IMG/VR virus record: IMGVR_UViG_3300047358_000105 | Span: 1-22,099 of that record | DNA: 22,099 bases | Strand: one strand, 5' to 3' | DNA from: a virus | Shown: in pieces, positions 2,575-20,103 of the stretch | Position numbering within the stretch: position 1 is the first letter of the stretch | Layout: the number at the start of each line of letters is the position of its first letter | Position numbers and translations under genes: made by a program | The notes under the pieces: generated by a model | What the model saw: only the letters and a program-made list of their open reading frames with translations | Databases searched by the model: none | Told to the model about the DNA's origin: nothing

Positions 2575-3183
2575 TCAGTCGTTATATGTTGCAATAGGCT
2601 GCATAGCCTGGACTGTGCCAGATACCTCCGCATCGTTAGCTTGCTCCTGTAGTTCGGCTATGAATGTTACAAAGCGCTGCTCGAACAGTTGCCCACGTTC
2701 GTCTAAGAAGTAGTCAGCTGCATAACTAAGTGCGCCGTATGCAATCAAATCAGACGCAATCAATGACAGATCATTTGTGGAAGTTTCAGTCGCTAGATCT
2801 GCAAATTGACCATAGTAATTTACCGTTACAGAGCCAGATGACGGATATGGATATACCCGTATGTTTTCGCCTTCACGAACGAAGAACCTGGGTGTCCCAG
2901 CTTCCCCTGGCTGGGAGATTTCAACATACTTCGATAGAGGTACTTTGGTTAAATTAGTATTGGCATAATAAATGTCGATTATCTCTAAGAAGTCGGAAGG
3001 GATAATTAAAGTCGTTGTGCTCCCGTTAATGTTATAAGTTTGTGTCTTTTCCATTGGTGGTATGCGTAAGACACGCTGCGCTCGAGCAATAGATTGATCG
3101 ATAAAGGTATCAGCCAGGGTATTGCTACAGTCCGTCCTATTTAGAAGGGCCAGGAAGTGCGCCCTGAGTTCACCTTTGTTCAT
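2575..3183 (-). CDS. Head-tail adaptor (connector) protein
   Basis: A 202-residue protein that I place among the adaptor proteins that form a ring under the portal and join it to the tail in short-tailed phages. It starts with a helical segment (MNKGELRAHFLALLNRTDCS, then FIDQSIARAQRVLR). The segments LIIPSDFLEIIDIYY and PLSKYVEIS are typical of phage adaptors, as is RVYPYPSSGSVTVNYYGQF. The helical C-terminal part (LIAYGALSYAADYFLDERG, then AELQEQANDAEVSG) also fits. Length and position near the head genes agree. The ATG lies two bases after the stop of the 53-residue gene, with AGG in TAGGTAGAA as a weak ribosome-binding site. Adaptor is likely from pattern; no structure or search supports it here. 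Confidence 0.75.
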   Translation of the reverse strand: MNKGELRAHFLALLNRTDCSNTLADTFIDQSIARAQRVLRIPPMEKTQTYNINGSTTTLIIPSDFLEIIDIYYANTNLTKVPLSKYVEISQPGEAGTPRFFVREGENIRVYPYPSSGSVTVNYYGQFADLATETSTNDLSLIASDLIAYGALSYAADYFLDERGQLFEQRFVTFIAELQEQANDAEVSGTVQAMQPIATYND

Positions 3184-3758: not shown

Positions 3759-4646
3759 TTATGAAAGACCTGTGATCTTGACTGAATCGCCAAAGTTCAT
3801 GTGCTTACATGAATATTCGCCGACGATACTGTGCTTGTCAGAGTCGCCTGTGGCTGCAAGCAGCGTTCTAGCGAACGGACGTAGTACCGCTGTTTTAAAC
3901 ATAGACGGGTCAACTAGCAGAGCATGGTCTGTTGCTAACTCGCGGTTCAAAACACATCTATATTCACCGTAGGGCGACACATATAAATCGATTGCATTAA
4001 CGAGGGTTTTACCCTGTGCAATCTCACGGTTACGACCAGCTGAACCAGCGAAACCAGCAACGATTTGAGCGTCACCTGGTTTGATCATAAACGTGTTTAC
4101 GTCTGAGCCGTTTGTATACGCAGTTTCACCAGCTGTAAGAAGCTTTGCTTCTGTCAGTGGATCGGTTGCGTTTGAACCAGCGTCGACAGCTGTTGAGATC
4201 TGATTAAGCAAAGATGCCATTTTACGGGCAGCTGAACCTGATCCTGTTACGGCTGCTTGATCACGACCAACGAAAGAAGCTTCAACGTCTTTCTTGATAG
4301 CTTTTAGAGCTTTAGAAAGTTGATGGGCTGTTTCTTTAGCACGACCATATGTGGCAATAGCGTCTGCCGTTTTTGAGACCTGAAAACTCTCTTCCATGAT
4401 CTGGGTTGTGTTTGAACGCATTGTAGTAGCGACGAGAGTTGCCATTGTCGCGTCGGCTCCTTCGACGATTGCGTTATCTGCGCTGGAGCTTCTAATGGCG
4501 TCCTCTTGCCATTCAAATACTCGAGCTTGTACTTTCTCTGTTTTCATCAGAGTAAACATGGGCGTAGAAAGTGGACTAATGTCTGAGATGATATCTGAAA
4601 CGTCCTCTTTCCGTCCCACTTGGTCATAGGTTGTGTAAACCGTCAT
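3759..4646 (-). CDS. Major capsid protein (DUF5309/SU10-like)
   Basis: This 295-residue protein is the main shell protein of the head. It begins MTVYTTYDQVGRKEDVSDII, then SPLSTPMFTLMKTEKVQARVFEWQED. This opening with 'SPLxTPM...' and 'FEWQxD' is typical of the DUF5309 family, which includes the SU10/phiEco32-type major capsid proteins with an HK97-like fold. Later parts also fit: QIMEESFQVSKTADAIATYG, a helical segment ~100-125, NTFMIKPGDAQIVAGFAGS, and a C-terminal beta region with DPSMFKTAVLRPFARTLLA. Length is near the usual ~300-350. The gene follows the scaffold by 35 bases, with AAGG as ribosome-binding site, and is followed by a strong terminator. Both suit a highly expressed gene. 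There is no sign of a cleaved pro-peptide. Confidence 0.92.
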   Translation of the reverse strand: MTVYTTYDQVGRKEDVSDIISDISPLSTPMFTLMKTEKVQARVFEWQEDAIRSSSADNAIVEGADATMATLVATTMRSNTTQIMEESFQVSKTADAIATYGRAKETAHQLSKALKAIKKDVEASFVGRDQAAVTGSGSAARKMASLLNQISTAVDAGSNATDPLTEAKLLTAGETAYTNGSDVNTFMIKPGDAQIVAGFAGSAGRNREIAQGKTLVNAIDLYVSPYGEYRCVLNRELATDHALLVDPSMFKTAVLRPFARTLLAATGDSDKHSIVGEYSCKHMNFGDSVKITGLS

Positions 4647-6130: not shown

Positions 6131-8170
6131 TTAGCCAGTTGGTGATGCGATTGCTCTGACGTCGTCAGCTGTTCTCGCAATCTCTAGTTCAGCATTATCG
6201 ACCATCTGTTTGTGCTCGAGTTGTGCTTCTTTGAGATCCTGATTGTCAGACTGTAGGGCAAATTGTTGCTGTGCTTTCATCTGCTCTAATTGTACTTTCA
6301 TCTGTGCTACCTGGGCATCCATCTGAGCTTTCATCTCGGCTACCTGGGTTTGACGCTCTTGTAGTTCAATCTGTTTCTGTTGCATTTGCATCGCCATCTC
6401 GGCATTCTGATCAGGCTGCTCTGGTGGCAACTCTGATGGTGGCGTTAAGTAATCTTTGACGTTCTTAATGCCGTTCTGCTCCATGACGTGCGTCATCAGC
6501 TTATGTTGGTTCTCAGGTGTATACATCTTAGACAAGGTTTCATCAGCTGACATAATAGCGTGAAGGCTCATGTACTTTGTAGCTTCTGCTTCCTGTTCGC
6601 CGTATCCTAGGTGTAGCTCGACAGTGACGTCTCGTTTCTGACCCCAGGCAGCTGGGCTTACTTCTACAAAGTCTCCAGCTATTTCCACGATCTTGGCATC
6701 TGGCTCGTTCTCGACGACCAGCTGGTAAATCATTTGATACAGAGGTTTCAGAAAGTTGTTTGCGAAGTTACGTGCGATAATCTTTTGACGTTGCTGGCTC
6801 ATCGTTGCAAGTTGTTCAACCATTGCAGCTGAGTTTTGCTTGCTGATAGCGTCCTTGTTTAAGCCTTGGCTAAGACGTGAGACGCCTGTGGTATCCTCTT
6901 TGTCCTCATCCAGCATCTGTATGGTCTGGAAGATAAACGGGTTCAGAGGTGCCTGAGCCATTGGTGATATTGCATCGGGCCTAGAAACATTGATAATGCC
7001 GCCGACGCGATTGTCGATGAGCTCCCTTGGGTTGGTCAAACCGCCTTTGACCACCTGGTAACGTGGGTTATTGGTGATCATTGCGTGATCGAGGATCGAC
7101 CTGGTCAATACAGTTCGAGCGGTTTGTATTGGCAGTACTTTGGACCCAAAGTTAGAACCAAAGAATGCGTGGGGTATCGGTAGTGGAACGAAGGCACAGA
7201 ACGGTTTGTATGTGCATAGTTCTTTCTCAAGAATTACATTGCCAGCCTTTATGATCTTGTACGTTTCAGCAATGCCGTCACCCGACAAATCGACGTCCAT
7301 GTAAATCTCATACACCGTGACAGAACGGACCTGATCTTGATAGCCCTTAGCGTTGAAACCACGGTCTGACCCAATCTCTTCATGCCTCGATAGCACTTCT
7401 GGGTCACTTTCCATTTCCACATCGTCGTGATCGCCAATTTTAGCGATAAGCTTCTCATCATATCCAGCCTCTCTGAGTTCTGAAATTGTCATTTTAGTTC
7501 GATGGCCCAGAAATGATGCCAATTCTAATGACTTACACTGGGGCTCGATTATAAACTCCTCAGGAGCAATGGCCTCAATGGCTACCTGGCTTGCGTCCTG
7601 GCTAATGCGTAGGTCTCCGCTGTAGAGACCGAGTTCGTCTTGTGTAACTTCCTCGATCTCTACGTTGTCCTGGGCAACTATAGCGTCGAACTCTTCTTCC
7701 GTTAAATCTTCTATTGGTTCTAAGTAAGATTCCTCACGCTCGTCCCAGTATACTTTACATAAGCCAGCCCTTGCTATGAGACCGTCGTGGATAACCGACT
7801 GCATCACTTCAAATAGATTGTTTTGTCTGTTGGCTACATAGTCACAGTACGCAGTGCTTACTTCTGCTATACGGGTATCCTCGCCTGTTTGCGCTGCGAA
7901 ACGTACAGTTTTATAGCCAGTGCTAAATGTTTCTAGCAGTGCAGCTTTCATGCTCTCGACGGCATCATAGACATCCATCGATACATACTTAGAGTTGCCA
8001 TCGTGCGCTGGGCGTGGGAGAGCGGCATTGTAATAATCTACAACCTTCTTACGCTCTCTACTAATGGCGCTGTCGAAGTAACCTATAGATCTGCGGATAT
8101 TATCATCCAGCATCGTGACTAGCTTTTCGTCATCGACCTTTTTGTAGTCTTTTTTATCCATAATGATCAT
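6131..8170 (-). CDS. Portal protein
   Basis: This 679-residue protein should form the twelve-part ring through which DNA enters and leaves the head. Typical portal stretches are SMDVYDAVESMKAALLETFS and VMQSVIHDGLIARAGLCKVY near the N-terminus. They continue with IAPEEFIIEPQCKSLELASF, FGSNFGSKVLPIQTARTVLT, and a helical region ending MSQQRQKIIARNFANNFLKP that would line the stem and crown. The length suits the large portals of podoviruses. Residues ~590-670 are rich in Gln, Met, Glu and Lys in heptad spacing and probably form a long coiled coil or barrel. The start overlaps the terminase stop in an ATGA arrangement; a second ATG three codons later is also possible. Position right after terminase fits. 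Confidence 0.93.
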   Translation of the reverse strand: MIIMDKKDYKKVDDEKLVTMLDDNIRRSIGYFDSAISRERKKVVDYYNAALPRPAHDGNSKYVSMDVYDAVESMKAALLETFSTGYKTVRFAAQTGEDTRIAEVSTAYCDYVANRQNNLFEVMQSVIHDGLIARAGLCKVYWDEREESYLEPIEDLTEEEFDAIVAQDNVEIEEVTQDELGLYSGDLRISQDASQVAIEAIAPEEFIIEPQCKSLELASFLGHRTKMTISELREAGYDEKLIAKIGDHDDVEMESDPEVLSRHEEIGSDRGFNAKGYQDQVRSVTVYEIYMDVDLSGDGIAETYKIIKAGNVILEKELCTYKPFCAFVPLPIPHAFFGSNFGSKVLPIQTARTVLTRSILDHAMITNNPRYQVVKGGLTNPRELIDNRVGGIINVSRPDAISPMAQAPLNPFIFQTIQMLDEDKEDTTGVSRLSQGLNKDAISKQNSAAMVEQLATMSQQRQKIIARNFANNFLKPLYQMIYQLVVENEPDAKIVEIAGDFVEVSPAAWGQKRDVTVELHLGYGEQEAEATKYMSLHAIMSADETLSKMYTPENQHKLMTHVMEQNGIKNVKDYLTPPSELPPEQPDQNAEMAMQMQQKQIELQERQTQVAEMKAQMDAQVAQMKVQLEQMKAQQQFALQSDNQDLKEAQLEHKQMVDNAELEIARTADDVRAIASPTG

Positions 8171-9744
8171 ACCATTTCAATGTAATAGTCATCTGCACTC
8201 TCAATCGGTTCCCAGGCACCTTCATGCACATGGTTTGCTAATGCCAGCGCCATGACACAGTCGTCATAACAACCAGGCTCGGCTTCCATAGAGCCACTTT
8301 CTGTGACGACATATGTAAGCATCTCTCGAATTGTAACTTTGTCGTTAAGCTCTATTTCGCCCTCTCTGGCTGACGCTCTTAGCTCGTCAATTATGAGGGG
8401 CTTAGTTTTAGCTGTTGTACTAAAGCCTAGCTTTATGGTTTCTTTGTCGGTCAACTTGTCGACCTGTATTTCTGTAAAGAAGTTAGAGTAAGCCATATCT
8501 TTAGCTAACCTGGTGCAAGTCAAAAGACCGTGACCGTTGTTTTCGACAATAATATACGCAGTGTTAAAGAAGTTTCCTAAGTGAAACAGAACCTGGGCAT
8601 AATAGTCTGGGTGAACATGGCCCCTCCAGGTTGCTACCATCCGCTTCTTACTATCGAGCACTTGAGCGACACTGTAGTCACCACCTCGGACGCCCATAGC
8701 GACGTCTGCGCCTATAACATATTGTTCGCCAGGATCGTGGCGTCGGTACATCGTAAGTTCGCCGCGCAAGTTGTTTAGCCACTCGTCGCCCTCGAGAGCT
8801 AAACGCTCGATAGGGTCTCGAGCAGTCTCAAGATGCTTCTGTAGCTGCTCTGGGTTAAACACTGGTCGACCTGTTGTCAGGAAGGCTTCCTCAGGCTCTG
8901 AGGGGTACTCCTGTTTAAACAAATCGATGCCGTTTTGTGCAATCTTGCGACGACGGAACATTAACTGCTCGTCATCGAGGGAATACTTGTCAGCTAGGTC
9001 TTCCTCGTCAGGTGTACGCTCAAACTTCTCAGGTACTTTCTCTCGGTACTCAGGGTCGACGTACCAGGGAATAAACACTGGCACAAAACCGTTCGTGCCT
9101 TCGACAGCGCCTTTCCAGAGGTCATAGAAGGTCCCTGTGACGCCGTTCGCTGTACTCTCAACGAATATAGCAGTGCCTGGTGCACTAGGAACGGCCTGTG
9201 TCAGCGAGTTCCAGTTGTCCAGGGCGGTAGTCTTACTCCAGAATGCAAGTTCTGAGCAGTGTACGTGTGTCAAGGTTTCCCCTCGACCAATGGCTTCACC
9301 GCCAGCGGTTGCAACAATGTACGAACTATCGAGGACATCAAAAGACAACTCGCGCCTCGAGGAATACTTAGTGTGTGGCTTGAGTATCTCAGGACAGTTC
9401 TCGTGATACCTTTTAGTCATATCAAATAGCGCACGAGTAGAGTCACTGTGGTGAGTGATGACCATAGCTTTGGCAGCTGGTCGCTGAGACACACTAAAAT
9501 ACAAGTAGCCGCCGACGTATGTCGACAGTCCCTGTTGTCGGGCCTTCAAGATAATTACTCGGACTTTGCCGTCTGTTTTTATCTGGTCGGTTACTGCGTC
9601 GTTTAGGATTTCCTGGGCTGGCTTAAGTGCTAGAGGTGCAATCTGCCCCGTTTTAGTTCTAATCTTGAGTGCAGACTTCGCGTAAAAGCTAAAGTCTTCA
9701 TAAAGTCGCTTACGAACTTGCTCCAGTTTCTTCTTCTGTGTCAT
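8167..9744 (-). CDS. terL: Large terminase subunit (ATPase and nuclease)
   Basis: The DNA-packaging motor that pumps DNA into the head and cuts the concatemer. Numbering is from the ATG at 9744 (525 residues). A deviant Walker A, KARQQGLST, is at ~67-75. Walker B, HVHCSE, is at ~160-165. The coupling motif VESTANG is at ~195-201. The RNase H-like nuclease has GADVAMG with the first Asp at ~347, IVENNGHG with Glu at ~401 and YDDCVMALA with Asp at ~494-495. All key residues are present. The open frame starts earlier at TTG 9765, but AAGGAG nine bases before ATG 9744 decides the start. It overlaps the end of the small terminase gene by 35 bases and the start of portal by four, a tightly coupled packaging cassette. 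Confidence 0.96.
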   Translation of the reverse strand: MTQKKKLEQVRKRLYEDFSFYAKSALKIRTKTGQIAPLALKPAQEILNDAVTDQIKTDGKVRVIILKARQQGLSTYVGGYLYFSVSQRPAAKAMVITHHSDSTRALFDMTKRYHENCPEILKPHTKYSSRRELSFDVLDSSYIVATAGGEAIGRGETLTHVHCSELAFWSKTTALDNWNSLTQAVPSAPGTAIFVESTANGVTGTFYDLWKGAVEGTNGFVPVFIPWYVDPEYREKVPEKFERTPDEEDLADKYSLDDEQLMFRRRKIAQNGIDLFKQEYPSEPEEAFLTTGRPVFNPEQLQKHLETARDPIERLALEGDEWLNNLRGELTMYRRHDPGEQYVIGADVAMGVRGGDYSVAQVLDSKKRMVATWRGHVHPDYYAQVLFHLGNFFNTAYIIVENNGHGLLTCTRLAKDMAYSNFFTEIQVDKLTDKETIKLGFSTTAKTKPLIIDELRASAREGEIELNDKVTIREMLTYVVTESGSMEAEPGCYDDCVMALALANHVHEGAWEPIESADDYYIEMV

Positions 9745-10213
9745 CTTCTGCATCTCCTTCGTCAAGTAGTGAACTTAGGAATGCTTCTGCTTTTCCTACG
9801 GTCACTTCCTGTTTTGACACTGGTTTTGACTTGGTGAAGTCAAGGACCAGACGTGCAGCTGTTAGACGATCTCGAGTTTGCCCTGGGGTGCGTAGGATTT
9901 CTACAGCTGCCTCGAGTGCCTCTGTGGCGTGGGTGTTTTCGTTTTCATCTGTCATAATTGCTACTGCCTTCTTTGCGTCTTCTTTCGCTTGCTGCCTAAT
10001 TGGCTCGATAGTTTCTTTGGTGAACCCGTCAGGGACTGCTAGTGGTCGACCACCTTTGTTCTTTCGGGTCAAAAGCATTTCTCTGTGCTTTGCTCGGCCT
10101 TCTGGCGTAAAATGCTGAGTTGCTAAAGGGTTCTTGTTGGTTGGTCTCGCCATGTTTGAGTTATATGGCTTTTTCTTGGGAAACTTGGATCGAGGATGCT
10201 TTGGTACGGGCAT
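9710..10213 (-). CDS. Probable small terminase subunit
   Basis: A 167-residue protein placed just before and overlapping the large terminase. The N-terminus is very basic (MPVPKHPRSKFPKKKPYNSN) and is followed by an R-x-K-N-K-GGRP element that could bind DNA. Residues ~60-135 are helical (FTKETIEPIRQQAKEDAKKA, then ALEAAVEILRTPGQTRDRLT, AARLVLDF). The end is acidic (DEGDAEDDTEEETGASS). This matches proteins found upstream of terL in many marine phages. The small subunit recognises the packaging site and passes DNA to TerL. A good ribosome-binding site (AAGGAG, spacing eight) precedes the ATG. The call rests mostly on position and general make-up, since small terminases diverge strongly. Confidence 0.7.
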   Translation of the reverse strand: MPVPKHPRSKFPKKKPYNSNMARPTNKNPLATQHFTPEGRAKHREMLLTRKNKGGRPLAVPDGFTKETIEPIRQQAKEDAKKAVAIMTDENENTHATEALEAAVEILRTPGQTRDRLTAARLVLDFTKSKPVSKQEVTVGKAEAFLSSLLDEGDAEDDTEEETGASS

Positions 10214-10233: not shown

Positions 10234-13200
10234 TTATGCTGATAGTGCTCCAGGTTGCATTGGTTGGTTGAGTGCTCCTGGTGGTGGCATCATGCGACGA
10301 CGCTCTTCTTCGTCAGCTGCTTCGTCTTGTTTTGCCATAATTGCCATAACGACAGCCATTGCCATAGCTAGTGGGTGCGTAAAGAATTGAACTCGAGTGC
10401 TATATTGAAAGAACCCTTTTATAACTTTTGCAGTTTCTGGGTAATCCTTTTTCATCTTTTTGGGATTATTCATGTAGAATATTAAAGGATCGACAGCCAT
10501 CTCAGGCGCACCTCTGGCATACTTTTTATAATCAGGGTCTACTGCTAGGCCGATAGGGTTGCGCACTTGATACTGGTCAAAAGGGGATTGTCGGAGACCT
10601 GTTGATCTAAATTTTGCTTTGCTTTGCATGTCCTTAATTTCTTTTAGAACCTTGTTGCGAACCCCTTTTGGTACTTGAGTATTGTTTGTTAAAAGACGGG
10701 CTACAAACTGCTCAAAAGAACCGTGACCAGCTATTTCAATACGCCCTGTTAATTTGTTTTTACCTACCTTCACAGCTGGCCTGGTTATTCCCTCTGCCTT
10801 TGTACCAAACTTGTTTAATATAGCTGGGTGGTACTGTTGGTCTGCTAGTCCGTGTAGAACTTCATGCAGTGCAGTAATATATGAATCAAACTCCGACGTC
10901 TCATTCCCAGTTACGTCTACAGCGCCCTCTTGTAAAACTGCTGCTCGACCTCGTTGTGTCGTTTCATTACGCATAAAGAAACCTACAACGTCTCCCATGC
11001 CCCGTATTTCTTGGAATGCTTCAGTAATTGCTTTTTGATCACTAAATAGCTCTAAAGATACATTTATGACGTCAGCAAGTTGCCTAACTTCATCAAGAGT
11101 TTTAATGCCATCCTCATATTTAGATCCAGGCTTACCAATCTCAAAGACTGCTTTTATTGCCTGACCAGCCTGTTTTACTTCGTCTTGGGTTGGAACAGGA
11201 CCCCTGGGTGAGGGTCCCCTATCGGACCCTTGGATACGTTCTGCGAGGGCGGCTGCGACGCCTGTTTGTTGCGCTGGCCCAACTCGACTAGCTCTTGGAT
11301 TGCCTGGGCCATCTTGTCCTGAGGTATCTGGCTGATTATTGACTGCTCCGTCTCCGTCTGATGGGGGGAGTGTTTGGTTAATTTGGTCATCTGTAAACCC
11401 TTCCTTTAGTGCAAGCATCTTAGCAGCATCTAAATAGTCATTATCTGCGCCACGTCCTGGGGCTACACCCAGTTTTCTAAACAGCTGCTTCTCGGGATAC
11501 CACATAAGCGCCTGGAAGTCGGCTGTATCTATCATATAGCCATTCTGACGTAGCTTTTCAATGGCAGCCTTAGTAACTGTACGCATGTAAGAGCGTTCTC
11601 CAGCGCCTTTTGGCTGCGCTTGCAGCTGAGGGACCATATTCTTGGTCATGGTGCCTGATGATTTAAACAATTGAGGCTTTTCGACCTTTTGTTTTGTACC
11701 TTTAAGCTCTATCGAGCGTTTTCTGAAGAAACTTTGGTAATTGCTTTCTAGCTTAGTAACAAAAGTATCTAATGTTTCGTCGTTTTTGAGGTCAGACCGC
11801 TTTATTCCTAGTTCTTTAAGCGTTTGGTTTGTTAAGCGCTTTTCTAATGCGTCCTGGTTTTTAGTTTTTACTTGTTCGCGGATTGTAGCTCTGTTTTTGC
11901 CGAGATCTTTAGATGCCTCAAAGGGGCGTCCAACAAGCCTATTCCACATACGCATCCACCATATATCCATCGTTAATGGATCATAGTTCCCTCGAATGTT
12001 TTGGTAAAAACCTTGGCCTATTTTAGGTCCAATTATGAAAGAGCCTTTAACTGTTTCGTTTTGACCTTCAGATGATGGTACTTTAATGTTAGTGCCATTT
12101 CTTTCATTAAATCCAGATGCCCACTCCTTAAGATCTCTTACAGTATAATCACCGTCTAAAAACTCTTGAATAGGCAAGTTTGTGCCTGACGCATTATAGG
12201 CATTAAAGAAGTTAAAAGCTTGGACCATTCCGTTGTTACGCTCACCACCTTTAATCCAGGTATCGGTAGGCATGACGCCATTGTCCATAAAGTGCCTAAA
12301 CACTTCCAATGCATACTCAAAGTTATCAGCAACTGCTTGACCATTAGATGTAACTGCCAAGGCAAAATCAAATGCTGCTTCCGCATCTGGTGATTGAGTT
12401 ACCCGAGGCTCAACTAGAGAAACGACAGACTTAGCTGCTTTCAGCTTTCTGTCGTACCAGCCAATAGCATTGCCGTCGTTCTTAAGAGCTTGCATTGCTT
12501 CTGTAGCCATCAATGATGCTATTCTGTCGACGTTCTCAGGTGTGTACTCAAATGGTTCTGTACGGCCTGTAGCCTTCTGCCATTTGTTATTAAGGTAATC
12601 AACAGCCTCAACAAGTGTTCGTTTGTTTTCGGGCTTGTAGTCTCCCTCGCGCATTTGAGCTATGTCTTCAGCTGATGGCATTTCGTTTAAGTTGGTTGCA
12701 GACAAATCCTCAGTAGGTATGTTTAGTGGGTTTGGTGTCTGGCTTAAGACGGGTCCTGTAGCTGTTTCAGTCTGCATAAGCTCCTGGGCTTTTGTTGCGT
12801 CGACACCAGTAAACGAGTTATCTATTTGGTTTTCTAAACCGTTGTCTCGTAAGATTTGAGAAACTTCTGCATCATTAAGAATGCGGATAGGACGCATAGA
12901 TCCAGCAATAGGCCACCCTCGAGCATCCTGGGATGCATTAGGATTAGTTTTAAAGTCATAGCTTTCGGTAGGATCTAGGTTACGATTTAGGATACCATCA
13001 TTAGCCTTACGCTTAGGGTTAAATGAGTTATCACTTTCCGTCTGTGTTTCTGGGTTAATCATAGGCATTTCTACCTCAACCCAAACGCGCTGCTCACCGC
13101 TGACCTGAGCTTTACCTTGGTCAAACACTGGTAGTTCTACGCCATGAATACCTGATCTAGGGGAAAGTAACTTGTTACCAATCTTAGGGCGTTGAAACTC

Positions 13201-15798
13201 AGACGCATACCATTTGCCTAGTGAGTATCCACTGGGTGGTCCTTTGTCTCCACCACTTTTGGCGTATAAAGGCAGTATTTCACCTGGGCGCTTCTTCTGC
13301 ACTTTCATAAGCTTGTAGACAGTCCTGGTCTGCTCTGGAATAAGCTCTGGATTTAGCAAAGGCGCTTGTGGTTTCTTGGGGTCTGACTGAATATTTGGAA
13401 CTCTAGAAGCTTTTGGTTCAGCTGGCTGCTCGGGAGCATTACGCTTTTGCTGACCAATGACACGATCAGCGTACGGTTTGACGTACGTGTCGATAGCTTC
13501 CTGGGAGACGCCAGCGTCTTGTAGCTTCTGGATCTCTGTCTGTACGGTAGGTACTGGTGATGACCCTAAGTTGTTTGTTAGGTTCTCCAGAGACGTAATG
13601 ATGCGACCACGGTCTACGAGAGACAAGCTTTTATCTAACGTGGCACCGTCTTGTAGCTCTCGATTGAACTGTAAGTTGTTCTCGATGCCTCGATTGTAAT
13701 TCTGAGGAGTTGTGAACTGTGGTCCAAACTCATCGCCGCCCTGGGGTTGCGCTGGTCCTGTTGTGTCTACGTTTGGCTGTACACTATTGTTTGGCTCTCG
13801 TACTCGCTCGACAAGACCAGGGTTATTAGCGACACGCTCGTTAACCATGCGGATCAAAGGTGTTAAATCTTTTACTTTGCCACCTTCAGCAACTGACTTT
13901 TTGTAACTGGCAATGGCATCGAGAATGGCTGGGTTGTCTGTTGTAGCTTCAATAATACGTAAGACTTTAGCGACACCTGATCGGTCTAGTCCCGTAGCGT
14001 CTTCCATCCTACCTTGAGGACTTTCAATAAAAGGTTCTGCATTCCTCTTAGTCAAATCTAGGTTCATTTGTCGTCGGTTAAATCTAGCAGTTTCTGCGTC
14101 AGCTGCTTCCTGATCTGCTCTCTGTTGTGCAGCTGCTTCTGCATCAGTCTGGGCTTGTATAAGAGAGTTACCTGACGGAGCGTCTAAGCCTGGTTTGCGC
14201 TCGTTCTTTCGAGTGAAACTATCGACAGCTGATCTTCTGCCTGTAAGTGCGTCGACGACACGACCACCAGCTGCAATACCTAATGTTGTACCACCAGATT
14301 GAAATGCACCACCAGCGCCCAGGATTATGTTTGCAACCCTACTTGGGTCATATGCACCACCTGAGACAGCGATAGGATTAAAGTAATCTGTAAATTGGCT
14401 AATGCCGCCTTTGAGACCGTTGTTGAACAAGTCAGTGACCTGGTTAGACATCTTAAGCAAGTTAGCCATCTTTGTCTTCTCAGCGCTGTCTGGAAGAAGA
14501 CGCATAATGGCGTCGTAGTTATCTTGCATTACTATAGATTTTACTTTGTTTTTACCTTGTCGAAGCGCTACATTGGCAGCTGAATAATCATCGATAAGTT
14601 CATCTAATGTGGTTGCATTTTTAGGCGACAAATATCCTTTAACAGCGTCGTTACTTGCTATCTGTTTTATTTGATCAGAAATATCCTCATGTGCTTTTTC
14701 TAAGGCTTGCTTTGCCCCTCTTTTTGAAGAAGCATTTACATCTGCAAGATTTAATCCGTTTTGGTTTGCAGTCTGGCGTATAATCTTGGCGACACTAGCA
14801 GCTGCTTCTTTTTGATCTGCATCGATGCTGTCAGGATCAACTAAGTTACCTTCTCCAGTAAATAGGCTTTTTACTTTAGTTGCAGTATTAGAGCTTGCTT
14901 TTATGCTAGAGCCTACGACACCACCAGCTGCTACAGCTTCTTTTAGGCGCTCAACTATTTCACTTTGTTCAAACTTTTTACCAGCTACAGCTTCTGAACC
15001 AATAACGACTAGCTCTTGTAAACCTTCTGTCGTTCCCTCGGTAATAAAACCTTTAGATATGCCACCAATAATACTTGTTGAAACGCCGTTTGGTAATAAC
15101 TTAGCGATACCTAGGTTTTCCAAGACAGCCATGATGGCACCGCCAGTGGCTGCTATGTCGTCTTTCTGTGCTTGGTTTAAACCTTCGATCTCATCGAGCG
15201 ACTGACTAATCTCACCGACGCCAAACGGGTACGTTAGTGTGCCTCCTGATGCTAATGCTGCTCCCATGTATGGAAGTGCCTGGGCAGTCTTTTGAGACAC
15301 AAAGTTAACGAATGATCCGACGTCTTTGATGTCACCTGTAGTCAGGTTTTGAAAGTTAAGGTCGTCTTGTAACTTTTGCGCTGCTTCCGCTGACAGATCA
15401 GCTGCTTTCTCCAGGCGTTTAGTTTCTGCCTGGTTAACTGCATCGATGTCGATAGGATCAAATCCAAATGTCTCTCGAACTGGGTTAGCTACGTTTTCTG
15501 TTAGATACTTTTGTGCATCACCAAACACGCCGCCTGATAGATTACGCTGTAAGGATGCTGCACCTGACTGTGATAATGATTGAGATTGAGCATCACCTAC
15601 TTTAAAAGCAGTACCAAAAGACGTATCGCCTGTAGGCGCTTCTGGTGCTTCATTAACTGGCTCTGGCTGTTGTACTTGGTTGTTTGTTGGCTGCGCCCTG
15701 GCTGCTTTGATAGCTTGTGCAAGCTTAGTAGCAGCTGCGGTATCTCCAGCGGCATGTGCCGCTTTGAGCGCACGGCTCAAGCGTTCTAAATCAGCCAT
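10234..15798 (-). CDS. Giant internal/ejected virion protein with polyvalent-protein domains and HExxH motif
   Basis: A protein of 1854 residues, by far the largest here. The N-terminus (LSRALKAAHAAGDTAAATKL) is a repeat type common at the start of large phage internal proteins. Residues ~175-300 hold Gly/Ala-rich hydrophobic stretches (ALPYMGAALASGGTLTYPFG; FITEGTTEGLQELVVIGSEA) that could touch membranes. Residues ~826-990 (YKLMK ... VWVEVE ... WPIAGSMRPIRILNDAEVSQ) and ~1060-1460 (AIGWYDRKL, IIGPKIGQGFYQNI at ~1255, LMWYPEKQLF at ~1432) resemble domains seen in large polyvalent proteins of phages and mobile elements. HEVLHG at 1645-1649 with FEQFVARLL (Glu 1696) suggests a zinc metallopeptidase fold. 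A last hydrophobic stretch is at ~1808-1822. It follows two other virion proteins and precedes terS. Ejection with the DNA is inferred by analogy with T7 internal proteins; no activity is proven. Confidence 0.75.
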   Translation of the reverse strand: MADLERLSRALKAAHAAGDTAAATKLAQAIKAARAQPTNNQVQQPEPVNEAPEAPTGDTSFGTAFKVGDAQSQSLSQSGAASLQRNLSGGVFGDAQKYLTENVANPVRETFGFDPIDIDAVNQAETKRLEKAADLSAEAAQKLQDDLNFQNLTTGDIKDVGSFVNFVSQKTAQALPYMGAALASGGTLTYPFGVGEISQSLDEIEGLNQAQKDDIAATGGAIMAVLENLGIAKLLPNGVSTSIIGGISKGFITEGTTEGLQELVVIGSEAVAGKKFEQSEIVERLKEAVAAGGVVGSSIKASSNTATKVKSLFTGEGNLVDPDSIDADQKEAAASVAKIIRQTANQNGLNLADVNASSKRGAKQALEKAHEDISDQIKQIASNDAVKGYLSPKNATTLDELIDDYSAANVALRQGKNKVKSIVMQDNYDAIMRLLPDSAEKTKMANLLKMSNQVTDLFNNGLKGGISQFTDYFNPIAVSGGAYDPSRVANIILGAGGAFQSGGTTLGIAAGGRVVDALTGRRSAVDSFTRKNERKPGLDAPSGNSLIQAQTDAEAAAQQRADQEAADAETARFNRRQMNLDLTKRNAEPFIESPQGRMEDATGLDRSGVAKVLRIIEATTDNPAILDAIASYKKSVAEGGKVKDLTPLIRMVNERVANNPGLVERVREPNNSVQPNVDTTGPAQPQGGDEFGPQFTTPQNYNRGIENNLQFNRELQDGATLDKSLSLVDRGRIITSLENLTNNLGSSPVPTVQTEIQKLQDAGVSQEAIDTYVKPYADRVIGQQKRNAPEQPAEPKASRVPNIQSDPKKPQAPLLNPELIPEQTRTVYKLMKVQKKRPGEILPLYAKSGGDKGPPSGYSLGKWYASEFQRPKIGNKLLSPRSGIHGVELPVFDQGKAQVSGEQRVWVEVEMPMINPETQTESDNSFNPKRKANDGILNRNLDPTESYDFKTNPNASQDARGWPIAGSMRPIRILNDAEVSQILRDNGLENQIDNSFTGVDATKAQELMQTETATGPVLSQTPNPLNIPTEDLSATNLNEMPSAEDIAQMREGDYKPENKRTLVEAVDYLNNKWQKATGRTEPFEYTPENVDRIASLMATEAMQALKNDGNAIGWYDRKLKAAKSVVSLVEPRVTQSPDAEAAFDFALAVTSNGQAVADNFEYALEVFRHFMDNGVMPTDTWIKGGERNNGMVQAFNFFNAYNASGTNLPIQEFLDGDYTVRDLKEWASGFNERNGTNIKVPSSEGQNETVKGSFIIGPKIGQGFYQNIRGNYDPLTMDIWWMRMWNRLVGRPFEASKDLGKNRATIREQVKTKNQDALEKRLTNQTLKELGIKRSDLKNDETLDTFVTKLESNYQSFFRKRSIELKGTKQKVEKPQLFKSSGTMTKNMVPQLQAQPKGAGERSYMRTVTKAAIEKLRQNGYMIDTADFQALMWYPEKQLFRKLGVAPGRGADNDYLDAAKMLALKEGFTDDQINQTLPPSDGDGAVNNQPDTSGQDGPGNPRASRVGPAQQTGVAAALAERIQGSDRGPSPRGPVPTQDEVKQAGQAIKAVFEIGKPGSKYEDGIKTLDEVRQLADVINVSLELFSDQKAITEAFQEIRGMGDVVGFFMRNETTQRGRAAVLQEGAVDVTGNETSEFDSYITALHEVLHGLADQQYHPAILNKFGTKAEGITRPAVKVGKNKLTGRIEIAGHGSFEQFVARLLTNNTQVPKGVRNKVLKEIKDMQSKAKFRSTGLRQSPFDQYQVRNPIGLAVDPDYKKYARGAPEMAVDPLIFYMNNPKKMKKDYPETAKVIKGFFQYSTRVQFFTHPLAMAMAVVMAIMAKQDEAADEEERRRMMPPPGALNQPMQPGALSA

Positions 15799-15813: not shown

Positions 15814-16656
15814 TTAATTAGTGGGAGCGTATTGATTAACCAAATCGTCGACGTCAGAGCTACCTCCAGAGACGGCTGCTTGTATCTTCTTAGCAATCTC
15901 CAAGCGTCTCTCAATTTGCGGTATCCAAGCGCCTTCGTTATCAAGAGCAATACTTGGGAATGGAGACATAAATAAGTTCATTTCTTGGTTAGAGATAGCA
16001 CCTTTAGTGAGGGCTACTTTAGTCAACGTCTGATCTACTTTGAACTCTTGTAGTAACTGGCGTAAGTACGCACGTTTAGATCCTTCGTTTGAACCTGACC
16101 ACCAATCTGATATACCCAAACGGTCTGCCCATTTTCCAGCGGTCCCATCATAGAAGCCTGTAAGGCCCCCTTCTTTTAGCCCCTCTAGAATAATCTCCAT
16201 TGTCTCAATCTGAGCATTAGCCATTGCTACGGCTTGCTCGTCTTCTGGATCTATTTCGGGCTTGGCTTCTTGCTCCATCTTGCGCTGCAAGTCTAAGCGA
16301 CGTTGCTGCTCGAGGGCCTGTTCTTGCTGTATGGCAAACTCGTCCATGTCTCGAGCGCGGTTGTAATCCATGATGTCGCCATACGTCTGTCCCATTGCGT
16401 TGTAGACACCTAAGCCACCACCAGTGGCTGACTGACCGAGACCAGATGTGCCTATACGCATCATTGCTTCACCAAGACCTATTTTCTGGTTCTGTGGCAT
16501 CTGAGGCATACGGATAGAGCCTCGAGCGTTACCACTGAGCGCTCCACCTGGTTGCGCTGTTGTGTTCATGGGTGCGTTGTTGGCTAAAACTGGCATTACA
16601 TTTTGCGCCCCGTTATAACCTGGGGTAAATCTTTGGTTCATTAATGCTGGGTTCAT
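15814..16656 (-). CDS. Probable internal virion protein, 280 residues
   Basis: The N-terminal ~60 residues are Asn/Pro/Gly-rich and probably disordered. Residues ~60-95 are Gly-rich (GLGEAMMRIGTSGLGQSATG, then GGLGVYNAMGQTYGD). Residues ~95-135 form a Gln/Arg/Glu-rich helix, likely coiled coil. The C-terminal half has LRQLLQEFKVDQTLTKVALT followed by KGAISNQEMNLFMSPFPSIA. This 'KGAISxxEMxLFMSPxP' pattern is common in virion-associated phage proteins, where it may be part of an injected or tail-inside protein. A strong ribosome-binding site, AGGAGG, overlaps the stop codon of the upstream gene (TAGGAGG), giving translational coupling. The location between two other likely internal proteins supports a joint role in DNA delivery. 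The exact function is not known. Confidence 0.7.
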   Translation of the reverse strand: MNPALMNQRFTPGYNGAQNVMPVLANNAPMNTTAQPGGALSGNARGSIRMPQMPQNQKIGLGEAMMRIGTSGLGQSATGGGLGVYNAMGQTYGDIMDYNRARDMDEFAIQQEQALEQQRRLDLQRKMEQEAKPEIDPEDEQAVAMANAQIETMEIILEGLKEGGLTGFYDGTAGKWADRLGISDWWSGSNEGSKRAYLRQLLQEFKVDQTLTKVALTKGAISNQEMNLFMSPFPSIALDNEGAWIPQIERRLEIAKKIQAAVSGGSSDVDDLVNQYAPTN

Positions 16657-16667
16657 TCTGTGTCCTC

Positions 16668-18065
16668 CTATACGACGCTAAATTGGCCTGGTTGGTAGCC
16701 AAAGTAGGGGTTCATAAAAGCGGAGTTACCGATGGCACTTCCTATCTGTGGTCCATACTGGTTCCCAAAGCCAAAACCAGCGCCCATACCAGCAAAGGTT
16801 TCTGCCGTTGGGTTTACCATGTTGGCTTGTGCAGTATTATTAGTTGTCGGAGCGCGGCCCAACATGCCAGACATGTAGTCTTTGTACATGTTGTATCCAA
16901 AGTCTCGATTGCCCTCAAAGTTGGCTCGGGTATCATTAAGTGCCGTCTGGTCAAACCCTTGTTGATTAGTGCCAGCGCCAAACGCCATGTTGCCACCATT
17001 TGTCGCCAGGTTTGTGCCTGTGTTAAATGCGTTGGCTATTTGGCTATTCATGTTGGCTGCGTTGCCAAATTGGTTGCCTACGTTACCAATGTTATTGGTT
17101 GCGTTCATAGCAGCGTTAGACGCATTTCCATAAGCACCGCCCATGTTGCCCGTCATTGCTGCCTGGTTGCCTATGTTGCCAACGGCGTTACCTAAGAAGT
17201 TGCCTGTGTTAGCCATTGATGTTCCCATCGATCCTGTGGCGTCCATAGCTTGTCCAAACTGTGCGTTGTCTTGGGCAAGCTTGGCGTTTCTCAATTGGTT
17301 GACGACGTCTGATCGCACGTCAGCCTCTCTGTCAGCAAAGCCTCTTTGGGCTACAGCTGAGGCGATACCAGCGCGGCTAGAGTTAGTGTTTCCACTGCCT
17401 GATGCGCCCATGTTGATCCCTGGCAATGTGCCTTCCTCGAGTGCGCGACGATCATCTCTGAGCATGGCGTCCACCAACGGGTTAGCATTGTTTACTGCGT
17501 AGTCGTTGGCTGCACCTATGCGGTCCTCATTGGCCCTGTCAGCTAGGGCTCCAAATCTATTTGTGATGCCTTGGGACTGACCAGTAAGGGCATCGAACTG
17601 TCCTTGGTAGTCACCTATCTGTTGTCGGTTACCACGGTAATCGTCAGCTAGTCCTATGTTCTTGGAGTACATATCGTCAAACTGACCAGTGCGGCCAGAT
17701 ATTTGATTACCTAAGCCATAGAACTGATTGTATAGGTCCTGTGAATTATTACCGAAGCCAGCGTTGTTTGCCATCATGTTCTGACCAGTAGCCATGTTGC
17801 CAGTGCCAAAGTTGTACATAGCGTTGTTGGCGGTGGTCTGCATGTCATTAGGGCCAGCTAAGGTTTGTCCCTGGTAGTAACCTCCAGCGAGAGCATCGTT
17901 GAAAGCACCTTGACCACCTTGCAAACCAGCGTCCACGTATGGCTCGTATTGTCTAAAGCCAGCCATGTTGGCTTCGTTCATACGTTCATTTGCAGCGCGG
18001 TCAGCTTTAGCGCTCTTATTTGCCATCAAGCCGCCAACGACGGCACCTATTACGGGCCAAACCAT
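16668..18065 (-). CDS. Asn/Gly-rich internal virion protein, 465 residues
   Basis: It begins MVWPVIGAVVGGLMANKSAK, a short hydrophobic Gly-rich stretch followed by a helical segment (DRAANERMNEANMAGFRQYE). This start is well known in virion proteins of marine phages that may be injected. The rest is strikingly rich in Asn, Gly, Ala, Met and Gln. Residues ~255-390 are degenerate repeats such as GNxxGN and NAxNxxxN (for example GNAVGNIGNQAAMTGNMGG). The open frame extends 30 codons upstream into the 92-residue gene, but ATG 18065 has GGAGAAG just before it and matches the usual family start. Neighbours on both sides of this gene and the next are virion proteins. The hydrophobic N-terminus could help cross the host membrane; this is inference. 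Confidence 0.7.
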   Translation of the reverse strand: MVWPVIGAVVGGLMANKSAKADRAANERMNEANMAGFRQYEPYVDAGLQGGQGAFNDALAGGYYQGQTLAGPNDMQTTANNAMYNFGTGNMATGQNMMANNAGFGNNSQDLYNQFYGLGNQISGRTGQFDDMYSKNIGLADDYRGNRQQIGDYQGQFDALTGQSQGITNRFGALADRANEDRIGAANDYAVNNANPLVDAMLRDDRRALEEGTLPGINMGASGSGNTNSSRAGIASAVAQRGFADREADVRSDVVNQLRNAKLAQDNAQFGQAMDATGSMGTSMANTGNFLGNAVGNIGNQAAMTGNMGGAYGNASNAAMNATNNIGNVGNQFGNAANMNSQIANAFNTGTNLATNGGNMAFGAGTNQQGFDQTALNDTRANFEGNRDFGYNMYKDYMSGMLGRAPTTNNTAQANMVNPTAETFAGMGAGFGFGNQYGPQIGSAIGNSAFMNPYFGYQPGQFSVV

Positions 18066-18102
18066 AGGCTTCTCCAATCTTATGTATGTATGTGTTTTTA
18101 GT

Positions 18103-18381
18103 TTAAACTTGTACCCAGGATGATCCGTTGTAGACCACGAGACCACTGAACCCATTACCGAGAGGGTTCCAAGGACTTACCGCATAGCGCACCATGCCCT
18201 TCTTGGGGCTGTCTGGTGGATTGTCTATTACTTGGATCGTTCCCTCGATGACGCTTCTTACGGCGTTCTCAATGGACTGTAGTTCCTGAGCTATGTAAAT
18301 CTTCACGCTCTCCTCGAGAGACGGGACTGCCCGTCTGACGTATGCATTAACAGTGACGTCGGTAATCTCATTGGTTGCCAT
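18103..18381 (-). CDS. Small structural protein next to the tail nozzle, 92 residues
   Basis: A 92-residue protein starting two bases after the stop of the nozzle gene, with GGGGAG as ribosome-binding site. The first half is helical (VRRAVPSLEESVKIYIAQEL, then QSIENAVRSVIEGT). The second half (NPPDSPKKGMVRYAVSPWNP, then GNGFSGLVVYNGSSWVQV) is a beta-rich module that I recognise from marine phage tail-fibre and baseplate-like proteins, where 'GMVRYA...G.GLxxYNGxxWV' recurs. It may be a small fibre-like or tail-attached protein. It has no signal peptide or membrane span. Structural nature is likely; the exact role is not known. Confidence 0.7.
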   Translation of the reverse strand: MATNEITDVTVNAYVRRAVPSLEESVKIYIAQELQSIENAVRSVIEGTIQVIDNPPDSPKKGMVRYAVSPWNPLGNGFSGLVVYNGSSWVQV

Positions 18382-18383
18382 GT

Positions 18384-19994
18384 CTAGCTTCTCCCCGTCG
18401 CCACGACGTCGAAGTCAAAACCTGAGACCGTAAAGTCTTTAATATCTGCTGTTTCTATCTTGTAACTAAGGTAGCGCCCTGACGCTCTAGAGTCGATCTT
18501 GTATGCAGTACCACTGTTAAAGGTAAAACTGGTTTCATATGTAGGATCTAGGGTAGCCAGGTCGGCTGCACCCATCGAGACAACAAACTCTTTATTGCCA
18601 GCGCTGGTGACAAACTGAGGGACCATCTTTGTGATGTTCTTGTAGCCTGACAATGGCAGCTGCGCCTCATCCAGGTCTATGCCTACGCGCTCCAACTTTA
18701 TTGGTTTAGTTGCAGCTGTATCTAGTGGCTCTGACAAAGACGAATTCTCGTTTATGCCATCCAGACCAAACATCTTTGATGCTGTCAGGCCATCGACTGT
18801 GGATGCCTGTCCGAGCATGAGAATGTTACGTGTAAAGCCAGCGTCCTGGGCGGCGTATGTACCGCCAGCTGTGTCGTAGGTTAATGTCGTTGATGCGTAG
18901 GTAGAAACGGTGTTTACGTTTGCTGACGTACCAGCGTAGATGTTAGGCAGATCTAAGAAAGACCAGGTGTCACTTCTGTAGTTGTAGACAGCTGCTCGAT
19001 TACACCCGTCGCCATTTGTGAACTCTGCCATGTCATCAGCGCTTTTGTAACAGAAGTAGATCTCTTCTCTCGCCTGGTCATACTGAACGAAGCACCTGTT
19101 AAAAGAGTTAGTGTCGATACTTGAGAAGACGTAGTCCTTGATGCGCCCGTCGACTATGGACTGCCTGGAGACGCCGTCTGTGACGTAGATGTCATTTTGA
19201 TCGAAGACGTAGTGTTTACCTTCCACCTCGACAATGCAGTTCTGATTGACGACACCAGCATCATTAAAGAGCTTACGAAAGTTGAATATGAAGGTGCCAC
19301 CAACGAACTCCATAAGCCACACCTGGTCACTAGAGTAGATCAGGAAGTTGGAGCCGAGAGTGGCCCCGTCTATGATAGGGGTAGTCATTTGCGATAGGTC
19401 ATTAAAGCCAGCTGACTTAGTGGTATCTGTAGCGTCCCAGCTGTCTGGGGCGTTGTTTGCCAGCGCTATATTGCTGAAGCGAACCCTGGTGGGAAATGCA
19501 GAACCGCCCTCGTCCATGTTAAGTGCTATCAAGAAATCACCAAAGGATCTTAAGGAGGCAGTGCGCCAGGTACTGTCCCAGTTTACAAGGGTGGCAAAGT
19601 TAGACATAGACGGTGATCGATACAAAGGTAAGACGTCTACCCTGTTAAGGTACTGCACGTTAGCTAATGACGTAGTTGTTACCTGGGCAGCGCTGGTTGA
19701 TGACGACGTAGCGTGATCGAGCGATATGGTGCCATTGGTAAACTCATGTACGTCGAAGGTATCACTAACAATAATGACAGTGTCGTAGCCTGTGGCGTTG
19801 TAGAGGCCATTAGTAAAGATAGGTGTAAACCCAGTTACGTCTATAATTGATCTGAAGCCAGGAGAGCGACGGACGTTGCCCTGGTCAAAGCGCACGTTCT
19901 TTGCCCTGGTGTATGCATTAAGCGGAAGGTTAAATGAATCAACGTCAGTAATTACGCCTACGGAACCTAGGTTACGGATCGGTAGGTTTGGCAT
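18384..19994 (-). CDS. Tail nozzle / tail tubular protein B-like
   Basis: A 536-residue protein that probably forms the short tail's nozzle below the adaptor ring. The start region, MPNLPIRNLGSVGVITDVDS followed by FNLPLNAYTRAKNVRFDQGN and VRRSPGF, is the signature of this family in short-tailed phages ('LPxNAYTxAxNVRF..G.v.r.pGf'). The remainder is beta-rich with blade-like repeats such as NFLIYSSDQVWLMEF, GKHYVFDQNDIYVTDG and AAVYNYRSDTWSFLDLP, which suggest a propeller. The open frame extends 13 codons upstream from a TTG, but ATG 19994 begins the family signature and lies ten bases after the stop of the small membrane gene. The ribosome-binding site is weak (GAAGTGAA). Confidence in the family is good; 'nozzle' is by analogy. 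Confidence 0.75.
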   Translation of the reverse strand: MPNLPIRNLGSVGVITDVDSFNLPLNAYTRAKNVRFDQGNVRRSPGFRSIIDVTGFTPIFTNGLYNATGYDTVIIVSDTFDVHEFTNGTISLDHATSSSTSAAQVTTTSLANVQYLNRVDVLPLYRSPSMSNFATLVNWDSTWRTASLRSFGDFLIALNMDEGGSAFPTRVRFSNIALANNAPDSWDATDTTKSAGFNDLSQMTTPIIDGATLGSNFLIYSSDQVWLMEFVGGTFIFNFRKLFNDAGVVNQNCIVEVEGKHYVFDQNDIYVTDGVSRQSIVDGRIKDYVFSSIDTNSFNRCFVQYDQAREEIYFCYKSADDMAEFTNGDGCNRAAVYNYRSDTWSFLDLPNIYAGTSANVNTVSTYASTTLTYDTAGGTYAAQDAGFTRNILMLGQASTVDGLTASKMFGLDGINENSSLSEPLDTAATKPIKLERVGIDLDEAQLPLSGYKNITKMVPQFVTSAGNKEFVVSMGAADLATLDPTYETSFTFNSGTAYKIDSRASGRYLSYKIETADIKDFTVSGFDFDVVATGRS

Positions 19995-20004
19995 TGCTTG
20001 TGTT

Positions 20005-20103
20005 TCACTTCTTTCTATTGCTGTCGATGACAACGGTTACAAAGATAAAGACGATAGCGGTAGCCATGAAGGCATACAGGATAATCTCAGATATAGGCAT
20101 CAT
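20005..20103 (-). CDS. 32-residue single-span membrane protein
   Basis: A short gene between the chaperone-like gene and the nozzle. The product starts MMPISEIILYAFMATAIVFI and continues FVTVVIDSNRKK. Residues ~5-26 form one hydrophobic helix and the end is positively charged (RKK), so by the positive-inside rule the C-terminus probably faces the cytoplasm. The ATG overlaps the upstream stop codon as TGATG, a classic coupling arrangement, and the gene ends ten bases before the nozzle ATG. An alternative start is the next codon, also ATG. Small hydrophobic proteins in such places can act as holins or other lysis or membrane factors, but nothing here proves that and no endolysin gene is visible nearby. 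The function is unknown. Confidence 0.65.
   Translation of the reverse strand: MMPISEIILYAFMATAIVFIFVTVVIDSNRKK

What the first reader, a model, noticed from the sequence alone, without database searches (positions are those of the whole stretch)
10234..15798. Ejection-type giant protein carrying an HExxH metallopeptidase-like domain
HEVLHG at residues 1645-1649, followed ~50 residues later by FEQFVARLL with Glu 1696, has the layout of a zinc metallopeptidase (two His, catalytic Glu, downstream Glu ligand). Here it lies near the C-terminus of an 1854-residue protein in the position of T7-like internal virion proteins. If ejected, the phage would deliver a protease into the cell envelope or cytoplasm at the start of infection, where it could cut envelope or defence proteins or process the ejected protein itself.
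Basis: partly seen in the sequence, partly recalled or inferred. Interest (0 to 1): 0.6.

Follow-up and report, generated by a model that had tools for sequence, protein, structure and literature searches.

The report
Obligate zinc-protease domain in ejected protein
The giant protein that this marine short-tailed phage probably injects into its host ends in a genuine zinc-protease-type domain, one that every complete relative keeps although in different versions and places; this is a new example of a known theme (injected multi-domain phage proteins) rather than a new kind of system.

Summary
The ORF is on the minus strand, and the third zinc ligand is not Glu1696 (not conserved) but almost certainly Glu1766, invariant with Tyr1760. 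HExxH is kept in 65 of 65 relatives covering the region (35-93% identity). AlphaFold2 gives a zincin topology; the best solved matches are M34-type zincins (lethal factor, PPEP-2/-3), at marginal E-values. Gene order (tail, gp14-like, gp15-like, giant, TerS/TerL, portal, capsid) is fixed in relatives, and the gp15-like neighbour carries an SLT transglycosylase in some, so the giant is probably a gp16-type ejection protein. After the zincin come a conserved hydrophobic helix and a conserved C-terminal 'PGALSA' tail. The most conserved part is a 460-residue helical core (1040-1500), shared with giants of unrelated phages bearing LPD38 or LPD22/ART-PolyVal domains. All 102 distinct complete core-bearing giants have an HExxH (1.06 expected), in five BLAST-unlinked zincin groups, before or after the core: an obligate but replaceable protease domain. 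This matches the zincin metallopeptidases of phage 'polyvalent' proteins (Iyer 2017), including N4 virion RNA polymerase. Most likely role: processing of the ejected protein at the host inner membrane; inferred, not shown.

The parts
10234..15798 (-). 1854-aa giant, gp16-type ejection protein (P0001)
   Evidence: ORF and translation; fixed gene order in relatives
10399..11181 (-). Zincin-like metallopeptidase domain, residues ~1540-1800
   Evidence: AlphaFold2 mean pLDDT 82.7; Foldseek best hits lethal factor, Certhrax, PPEP-2/-3; alignment of 49 sequences
10852..10866 (-). HEVLH, residues 1645-1649: two zinc-ligand His and catalytic Glu1646
   Evidence: 65/65 relatives
10489..10521 (-). Y1760-ARGAP-E1766-MAV-D1770: probable catalytic Tyr, third zinc ligand Glu1766 and Asp1770
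   Evidence: Y 50/50, E 50/50, D 49/50; Glu1766 at the start of a helix in the model
10711..10713 (-).
10336..10392 (-). Hydrophobic helix, residues 1803-1821, possible membrane segment
   Evidence: most hydrophobic 19-mer of the protein and kept in all listed relatives
10237..10287 (-). C-terminal tail PPPGALNQPMQPGALSA, residues 1838-1854
   Evidence: two Leu invariant in 50/50; ends listed
11299..12681 (-). Conserved all-helical core, residues 1040-1500, with sub-threshold DUF7178 similarity
   Evidence: alignments A2/A3; AlphaFold2 mean pLDDT 86.3; Pfam
12841..13326 (-). phrog_30118-like region, residues 825-986
   Evidence: E 3e-8
15814..16656 (-). 280-aa gp15-like ejection protein
   Evidence: homologues directly upstream of the giant; SLT domain in L068, L073, L027 versions
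16668..18155 (-). 495-aa gp14-like protein, weak 'DNA ejection protein' match
   Evidence: phrog_4287 E 0.0057; synteny
18384..20033 (-). Tail/virion structural protein
   Evidence: phrog_3287 E 3.6e-91
9710..10213 (-). Small terminase
   Evidence: phrog_2538 E 7.2e-5
8167..9765 (-). Large terminase
   Evidence: phrog_2 E 9e-32
6131..8170 (-). Portal protein
   Evidence: phrog_1216 E 2.5e-129
3759..4646 (-). Major capsid protein
   Evidence: phrog_1328 E 8.6e-80

Best explanation
The giant is a gp16-type ejection protein of the polyvalent kind. Its C-terminal domain is a zincin with a complete active site (His1645, His1649 and Glu1766 bind zinc, Glu1646 activates water, Tyr1760 probably assists catalysis). 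With the gp14- and gp15-like proteins the giant is packaged in the head and threaded into the cell envelope at infection. The hydrophobic helix after the zincin then anchors the C-terminus in the inner membrane, and the zincin cuts the ejected protein (itself or a neighbouring copy), freeing the helical core and other parts. Shown here: the motif, its conservation, the predicted fold, the synteny and the obligate pairing of core and zincin. Inferred: packaging, ejection, catalysis, membrane anchoring and self-processing. The confidence given is for the whole chain including self-processing; that the domain is a zincin I put at about 0.93, and that the protein is ejected at about 0.85.
For: HExxH 65/65; Tyr1760, Glu1766 and Asp1770 essentially invariant where mean column identity is 29%. 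Zincin secondary structure with HExxH and Glu1766 on separate helices; best PDB matches M34-type zincins; BFVD matches include polyvalent proteins and a phage 'endopeptidase family M34'. Profile match to the N4 vRNAP zincin set, probability 75, pairwise E 2.5e-5. Fixed gene order, SLT in the gp15-like neighbour, conserved hydrophobic helix and tail, as T7 gp16 has C-terminal membrane helices and essential end residues (PMC8954989). Self-processing rather than an optional host effector: 102/102 core-bearing proteins carry an HExxH, in five unlinked groups, on either side of the core; Iyer et al. propose the same for such domains (PMC5512222).
Against: No Pfam family is hit by the window protein. 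PDB Foldseek E-values are marginal (best 9e-3, TM 0.29). The core-zincin linker has no clearly conserved cleavage site. N4 vRNAP is reported packaged unprocessed and its full-length recombinant form was purified. No virion proteomics exists for this phage.
Confidence: 0.5

Rival explanations
1. The zincin is an effector that, once ejected, cuts host envelope or defence proteins.
For: Zincins in conflict systems can act on target proteins (PMC5512222); membrane-proximal position next to a hydrophobic helix.
Against: An optional host-directed weapon should be lost in some lineages, yet 102/102 core-bearing proteins keep an HExxH. No target is known.
Confidence: 0.22
2. The zincin acts before or during packaging, trimming the giant protein or another virion protein in the head, as suggested for P1 DdrB.
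For: DdrB is cut before packaging (PMC5512222); no separate prohead protease gene was recognised in the window.
Against: N4 vRNAP is packaged unprocessed; no conserved linker site seen; the conserved tail directly after the zincin suggests the full-length C-terminus matters.
Confidence: 0.15
3. The domain keeps zinc-binding residues for structure, docking or packaging and has no relevant protease activity.
For: The N4 vRNAP region that includes its zincin is needed for encapsidation, and its solved C-terminal domain inhibits the polymerase rather than being reported as a protease.
Against: The catalytic Glu1646 and Tyr1760 are as invariant as the metal ligands, which a structural zinc site does not require.
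Confidence: 0.1
4. HExxH is a chance match in a helical virion protein.
For: No Pfam hit.
Against: Universal conservation, predicted fold and structural matches.
Confidence: 0.02

Closest known systems
Zincin-like metallopeptidase (MPTase) domains of phage polyvalent proteins (Iyer et al. 2017, PMC5512222)
   Same: HExxH helix plus later Glu helix, inside very large phage proteins next to virion genes; relatives of the core carry LPD38, LPD22 and ART-PolyVal domains named in that work or in Pfam after it
   Different: The window protein itself has no recognised LPD or other polyvalent domain by Pfam; which of the 12 published clades it belongs to, if any, could not be checked
N4 virion RNA polymerase (gp50) C1 zincin domain, Schitoviridae (PMC12633501)
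   Same: Ejected giant protein with a zincin after its main domain; profile similarity over the N-terminal part and HExxH helix
   Different: The window protein has no recognised RNA polymerase domain; its zincin is at the extreme C-terminus followed by a hydrophobic helix, whereas N4 has a further ~1,100 residues
Peptidase family M34 (anthrax lethal factor, PPEP-2/-3)
   Same: Best solved fold matches; Tyr shortly before the ligand Glu (Tyr728/Glu735 in lethal factor, PMC3496994; Tyr1760/Glu1766 here)
   Different: About 120 residues between HExxH and Glu against 49 in lethal factor; no significant sequence match; the resemblance is of fold and active site only and implies nothing about toxicity
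T7 gp16 internal virion protein
   Same: Gene position after gp14/gp15-like genes, large size, C-terminal hydrophobic segment and conserved end residues
   Different: No transglycosylase domain here (it sits in the gp15-like protein of some relatives); the review read here does not describe a zincin in T7 gp16

Membership tests
Zincin-like metallopeptidases | HExxH on a helix, conserved | tested here: met
   65/65 relatives; helix 107-124 of the model
Zincin-like metallopeptidases | Core of N-terminal helix, beta strands, HExxH helix and later helix with conserved Glu | tested here: met
   helices and strands in order, Glu1766 at start of helix 235-248; zincins as best fold matches, marginal E
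Zincin-like metallopeptidases | Metal-site geometry of the His, His and Glu side chains | not testable with these tools
   model coordinates not provided
Zincin-like metallopeptidases | Zinc binding and proteolysis | not testable with these tools
   needs experiment
Phage polyvalent proteins | Very large multidomain protein encoded next to virion structural genes | tested here: met
   1854 aa, between tail and terminase genes
Phage polyvalent proteins | Domain shared with or fused to known polyvalent domains | tested here: met
   met for the family, not for this protein alone: core shared with proteins bearing LPD38 (E ~1e-33) and LPD22 + ART-PolyVal; no Pfam domain in P0001
Peptidase family M34 | Sequence membership (Pfam ATLF model) | tested here: not met
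   no Pfam hit for P0001; ATLF in only 2 of 49 relatives, best E 0.045
Peptidase family M34 | Fold and Tyr...Glu active-site layout | tested here: inconclusive
   top Foldseek hits are mostly M34 members, best E 9e-3; Tyr-Glu spacing 6 here against 7 in lethal factor
T7 gp16-like ejection protein | Synteny with gp14- and gp15-like ejection proteins | tested here: met
T7 gp16-like ejection protein | Presence in the virion and ejection into the host | not testable with these tools
   needs virion mass spectrometry and infection experiments
HhH-GPD DNA glycosylases (considered for the core) | Sequence or fold match | tested here: not met
   PF00730 no match; no fold match; profile comparison with E. 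coli Nth at chance level

The most novel reading that the evidence does not exclude
A single helical core domain of unknown function, passed between unrelated short-tailed phages, cannot do its job after ejection without a protease: at least five different zincin types have been recruited to it, on either side, which would make protease-dependent activation of an ejected core a general early step of infection in a large group of aquatic phages.
Probability: 0.3. Interest if true: 0.65.

Novelty: new member of a known kind. Interest (0 to 1): 0.42.

Why it matters
It gives a clean, testable case for an open question about ejected giant phage proteins: what their near-universal zincin domains do. 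Here the catalytic residues are invariant, the likely third ligand is now identified (Glu1766), and a zincin-type motif accompanies one core in every complete relative while the zincin type and position change. That pattern argues that proteolysis serves the ejected protein itself. An isolated relative with the same core and a zincin (Limnohabitans phage DC33) makes virion and infection proteomics possible.

Tried and rejected
Glu1696 as zinc ligand: rejected, not conserved. Chance motif: rejected. Pfam, NCBIfam and PADLOC on the window protein: no useful hit; PHROGs gave only unknown-function families. PDB sequence search with the zincin profile: nothing meaningful. Core as an HhH-GPD DNA glycosylase, suggested by GPKIGxGFxxN...TMDxWxxR with a Lys-Asp spacing of 19 (against 18 in endonuclease III, from memory): not supported by PF00730, fold search, PDB profile search or comparison with E. 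coli Nth; the scan for more diverse Nth sequences returned only close relatives. Core in bacterial genomes: 9 pattern matches, none confirmed. Conserved cleavage site in the core-zincin linker: none obvious. Zincin domain in plasmids and in the phage collection: no convincing match. Profile comparison of the window-type zincin with the other two main types gave only weak scores, so whether the groups share a recent ancestor is open.

Full report
What is in the window. All recognised virion genes run on the minus strand of a 22.1-kb viral fragment: tail-associated genes, a tail/virion structural protein, a 495-aa gp14-like protein, a 280-aa gp15-like protein, the 1854-aa giant (10234-15798), small and large terminase, portal, a 354-aa probable scaffold, major capsid protein and further tail genes. 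The record is a virus contig of 22,099 bases. The closest annotated relatives of its terminase and capsid are a Roseobacter phage and freshwater-spring phages at under 40% identity.

The motif. One scan of viral contigs gave 80 relatives of the giant. Of those, 65 reach the C-terminus, and all 65 have HExxH there, although residues around it vary (for example HEVAHG, HEISHA, HELGHA). In an alignment of 50 distinct sequences Glu1696 is E in only 13, whereas Tyr1760 and Glu1766 are invariant and Asp1770 is D in 49 and E in one. A larger alignment repeats this; its only four exceptions at Glu1766 are stray members of another type.

The fold. AlphaFold2 on residues 1530-1854 with 49 sequences gives mean pLDDT 82.7 and pTM 0.76, with the order helix, strand, helix, strands, HExxH helix, a long insert, then a helix starting at Glu1766. 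The best solved structures are anthrax lethal factor, Certhrax and the PPEP-2/-3 endopeptidases, M34-type zincins or their fold relatives, but at marginal E-values (9e-3 and above). Among predicted viral structures, one unnamed protein matches strongly (E 4e-12), and weaker matches include polyvalent-domain proteins and a phage 'endopeptidase family M34'. In lethal factor the zinc ligand Glu735 follows the catalytic Tyr728 by seven residues (PMC3496994); here Glu1766 follows Tyr1760 by six.

Is the protein ejected? In relatives with enough flank the order gp12-like, gp14-like, gp15-like, giant, TerS, TerL, portal, capsid is unchanged and on one strand; in the more distant ones the gp15-like gene falls below the search threshold. 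In three relatives the gp15-like protein has an SLT transglycosylase domain above the Pfam cut-off, as expected of an ejection protein; lysozyme domains are known to move between gp15- and gp16-like proteins (PMC8954989). The giant's most hydrophobic segment lies just after the zincin and is kept in all listed relatives, followed by an acidic stretch and a conserved tail whose two Leu are invariant. T7 gp16 likewise has C-terminal membrane segments and essential end residues. Ejection is therefore likely but inferred.

A conserved core with a changing protease. The most conserved part of the giant is residues 1040-1500, predicted all-helical (mean pLDDT 86.3), with a sub-threshold DUF7178 similarity in 33 of 52 sequences and no fold match. 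The core is about 52-55% identical between the window protein and giants of 2,500-3,000 aa from phages whose neighbouring genes do not match the window's. Those carry LPD38 at the C-terminus and a zincin before the core. A third type, including Limnohabitans phage DC33, has LPD22 and ART-PolyVal before the core and a different zincin after it. In L002/L003 the core is only about 30% identical although the C-terminal zincin is 44% identical, which looks like a swap.

Counting. Among loci gathered by three scans, 102 distinct complete core-bearing proteins were found. All 102 have HExxH, 89 after the core and 13 before it, against 1.06 expected from composition. At a BLAST threshold of 1e-5 the motif regions fall into five unlinked groups of 47, 43, 9, 2 and 1. 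The loci were collected with core or whole-protein queries and not by the presence of HExxH, so the motif was not selected for. That each of the rarer motif regions is a real zincin was not tested by structure.

Known theme. Iyer et al. (PMC5512222) described zincin metallopeptidases as the commonest domain of polyvalent proteins, noted that N4-like virion RNA polymerases are always fused to one, and proposed self-processing before packaging, in the head or after injection, or action on host proteins. The cryo-EM study of N4 vRNAP (PMC12633501) places HExxH in its C1 domain. The zincin profile of the window's family aligns with the N4 set at probability 75. The finding is a new member of this kind.

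Mechanism. The obligate but replaceable pairing argues for a role serving the ejected protein itself; I give self-processing after ejection 0.5, host-protein cleavage 0.22, pre-packaging maturation 0.15 and a non-catalytic role 0.1. None of these was tested here.

Noticed in passing
window 11299-12681 (residues 1040-1500): Near-invariant motif GPKIGxGFxxN...LTMDxWxMR in the all-helical core recalls the HhH-GPD DNA-glycosylase motif, but every test of that idea was negative.
   Followed up: partly
window 10237-10287 and 15814-16656: A PGALS-type motif is in the C-terminal tail of the giant (twice) and near the N-terminus of the 280-aa gp15-like protein, and in several relatives of both; possibly a shared docking or packaging signal.
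   Followed up: partly
residues 1-60 of the giant; relatives L004-L081: The first ~40 residues are exchanged between several unrelated short modules among relatives whose remaining sequence aligns.
   Followed up: no
L002, L003: Core only about 30% identical to the window while the zincin domain is 44% identical, suggesting exchange of the core.
   Followed up: no
L068, L073, L027 gp15-like genes: SLT transglycosylase domain present in these versions and absent from the window's shorter 280-aa version; L040 has a different, unmatched N-terminal extension.
   Followed up: partly
window 2575-3183: Matches the SU10 adaptor Pfam family (E 5.4e-27).
   Followed up: no
L082 (PQ492659.1, Limnohabitans phage DC33): The public record's taxonomy line says Inoviridae (filamentous phage), yet the 39-kb genome encodes a 3125-aa ejection-type protein with LPD22, ART-PolyVal and a zincin, as in tailed phages; the taxonomy looks wrong.
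   Followed up: no
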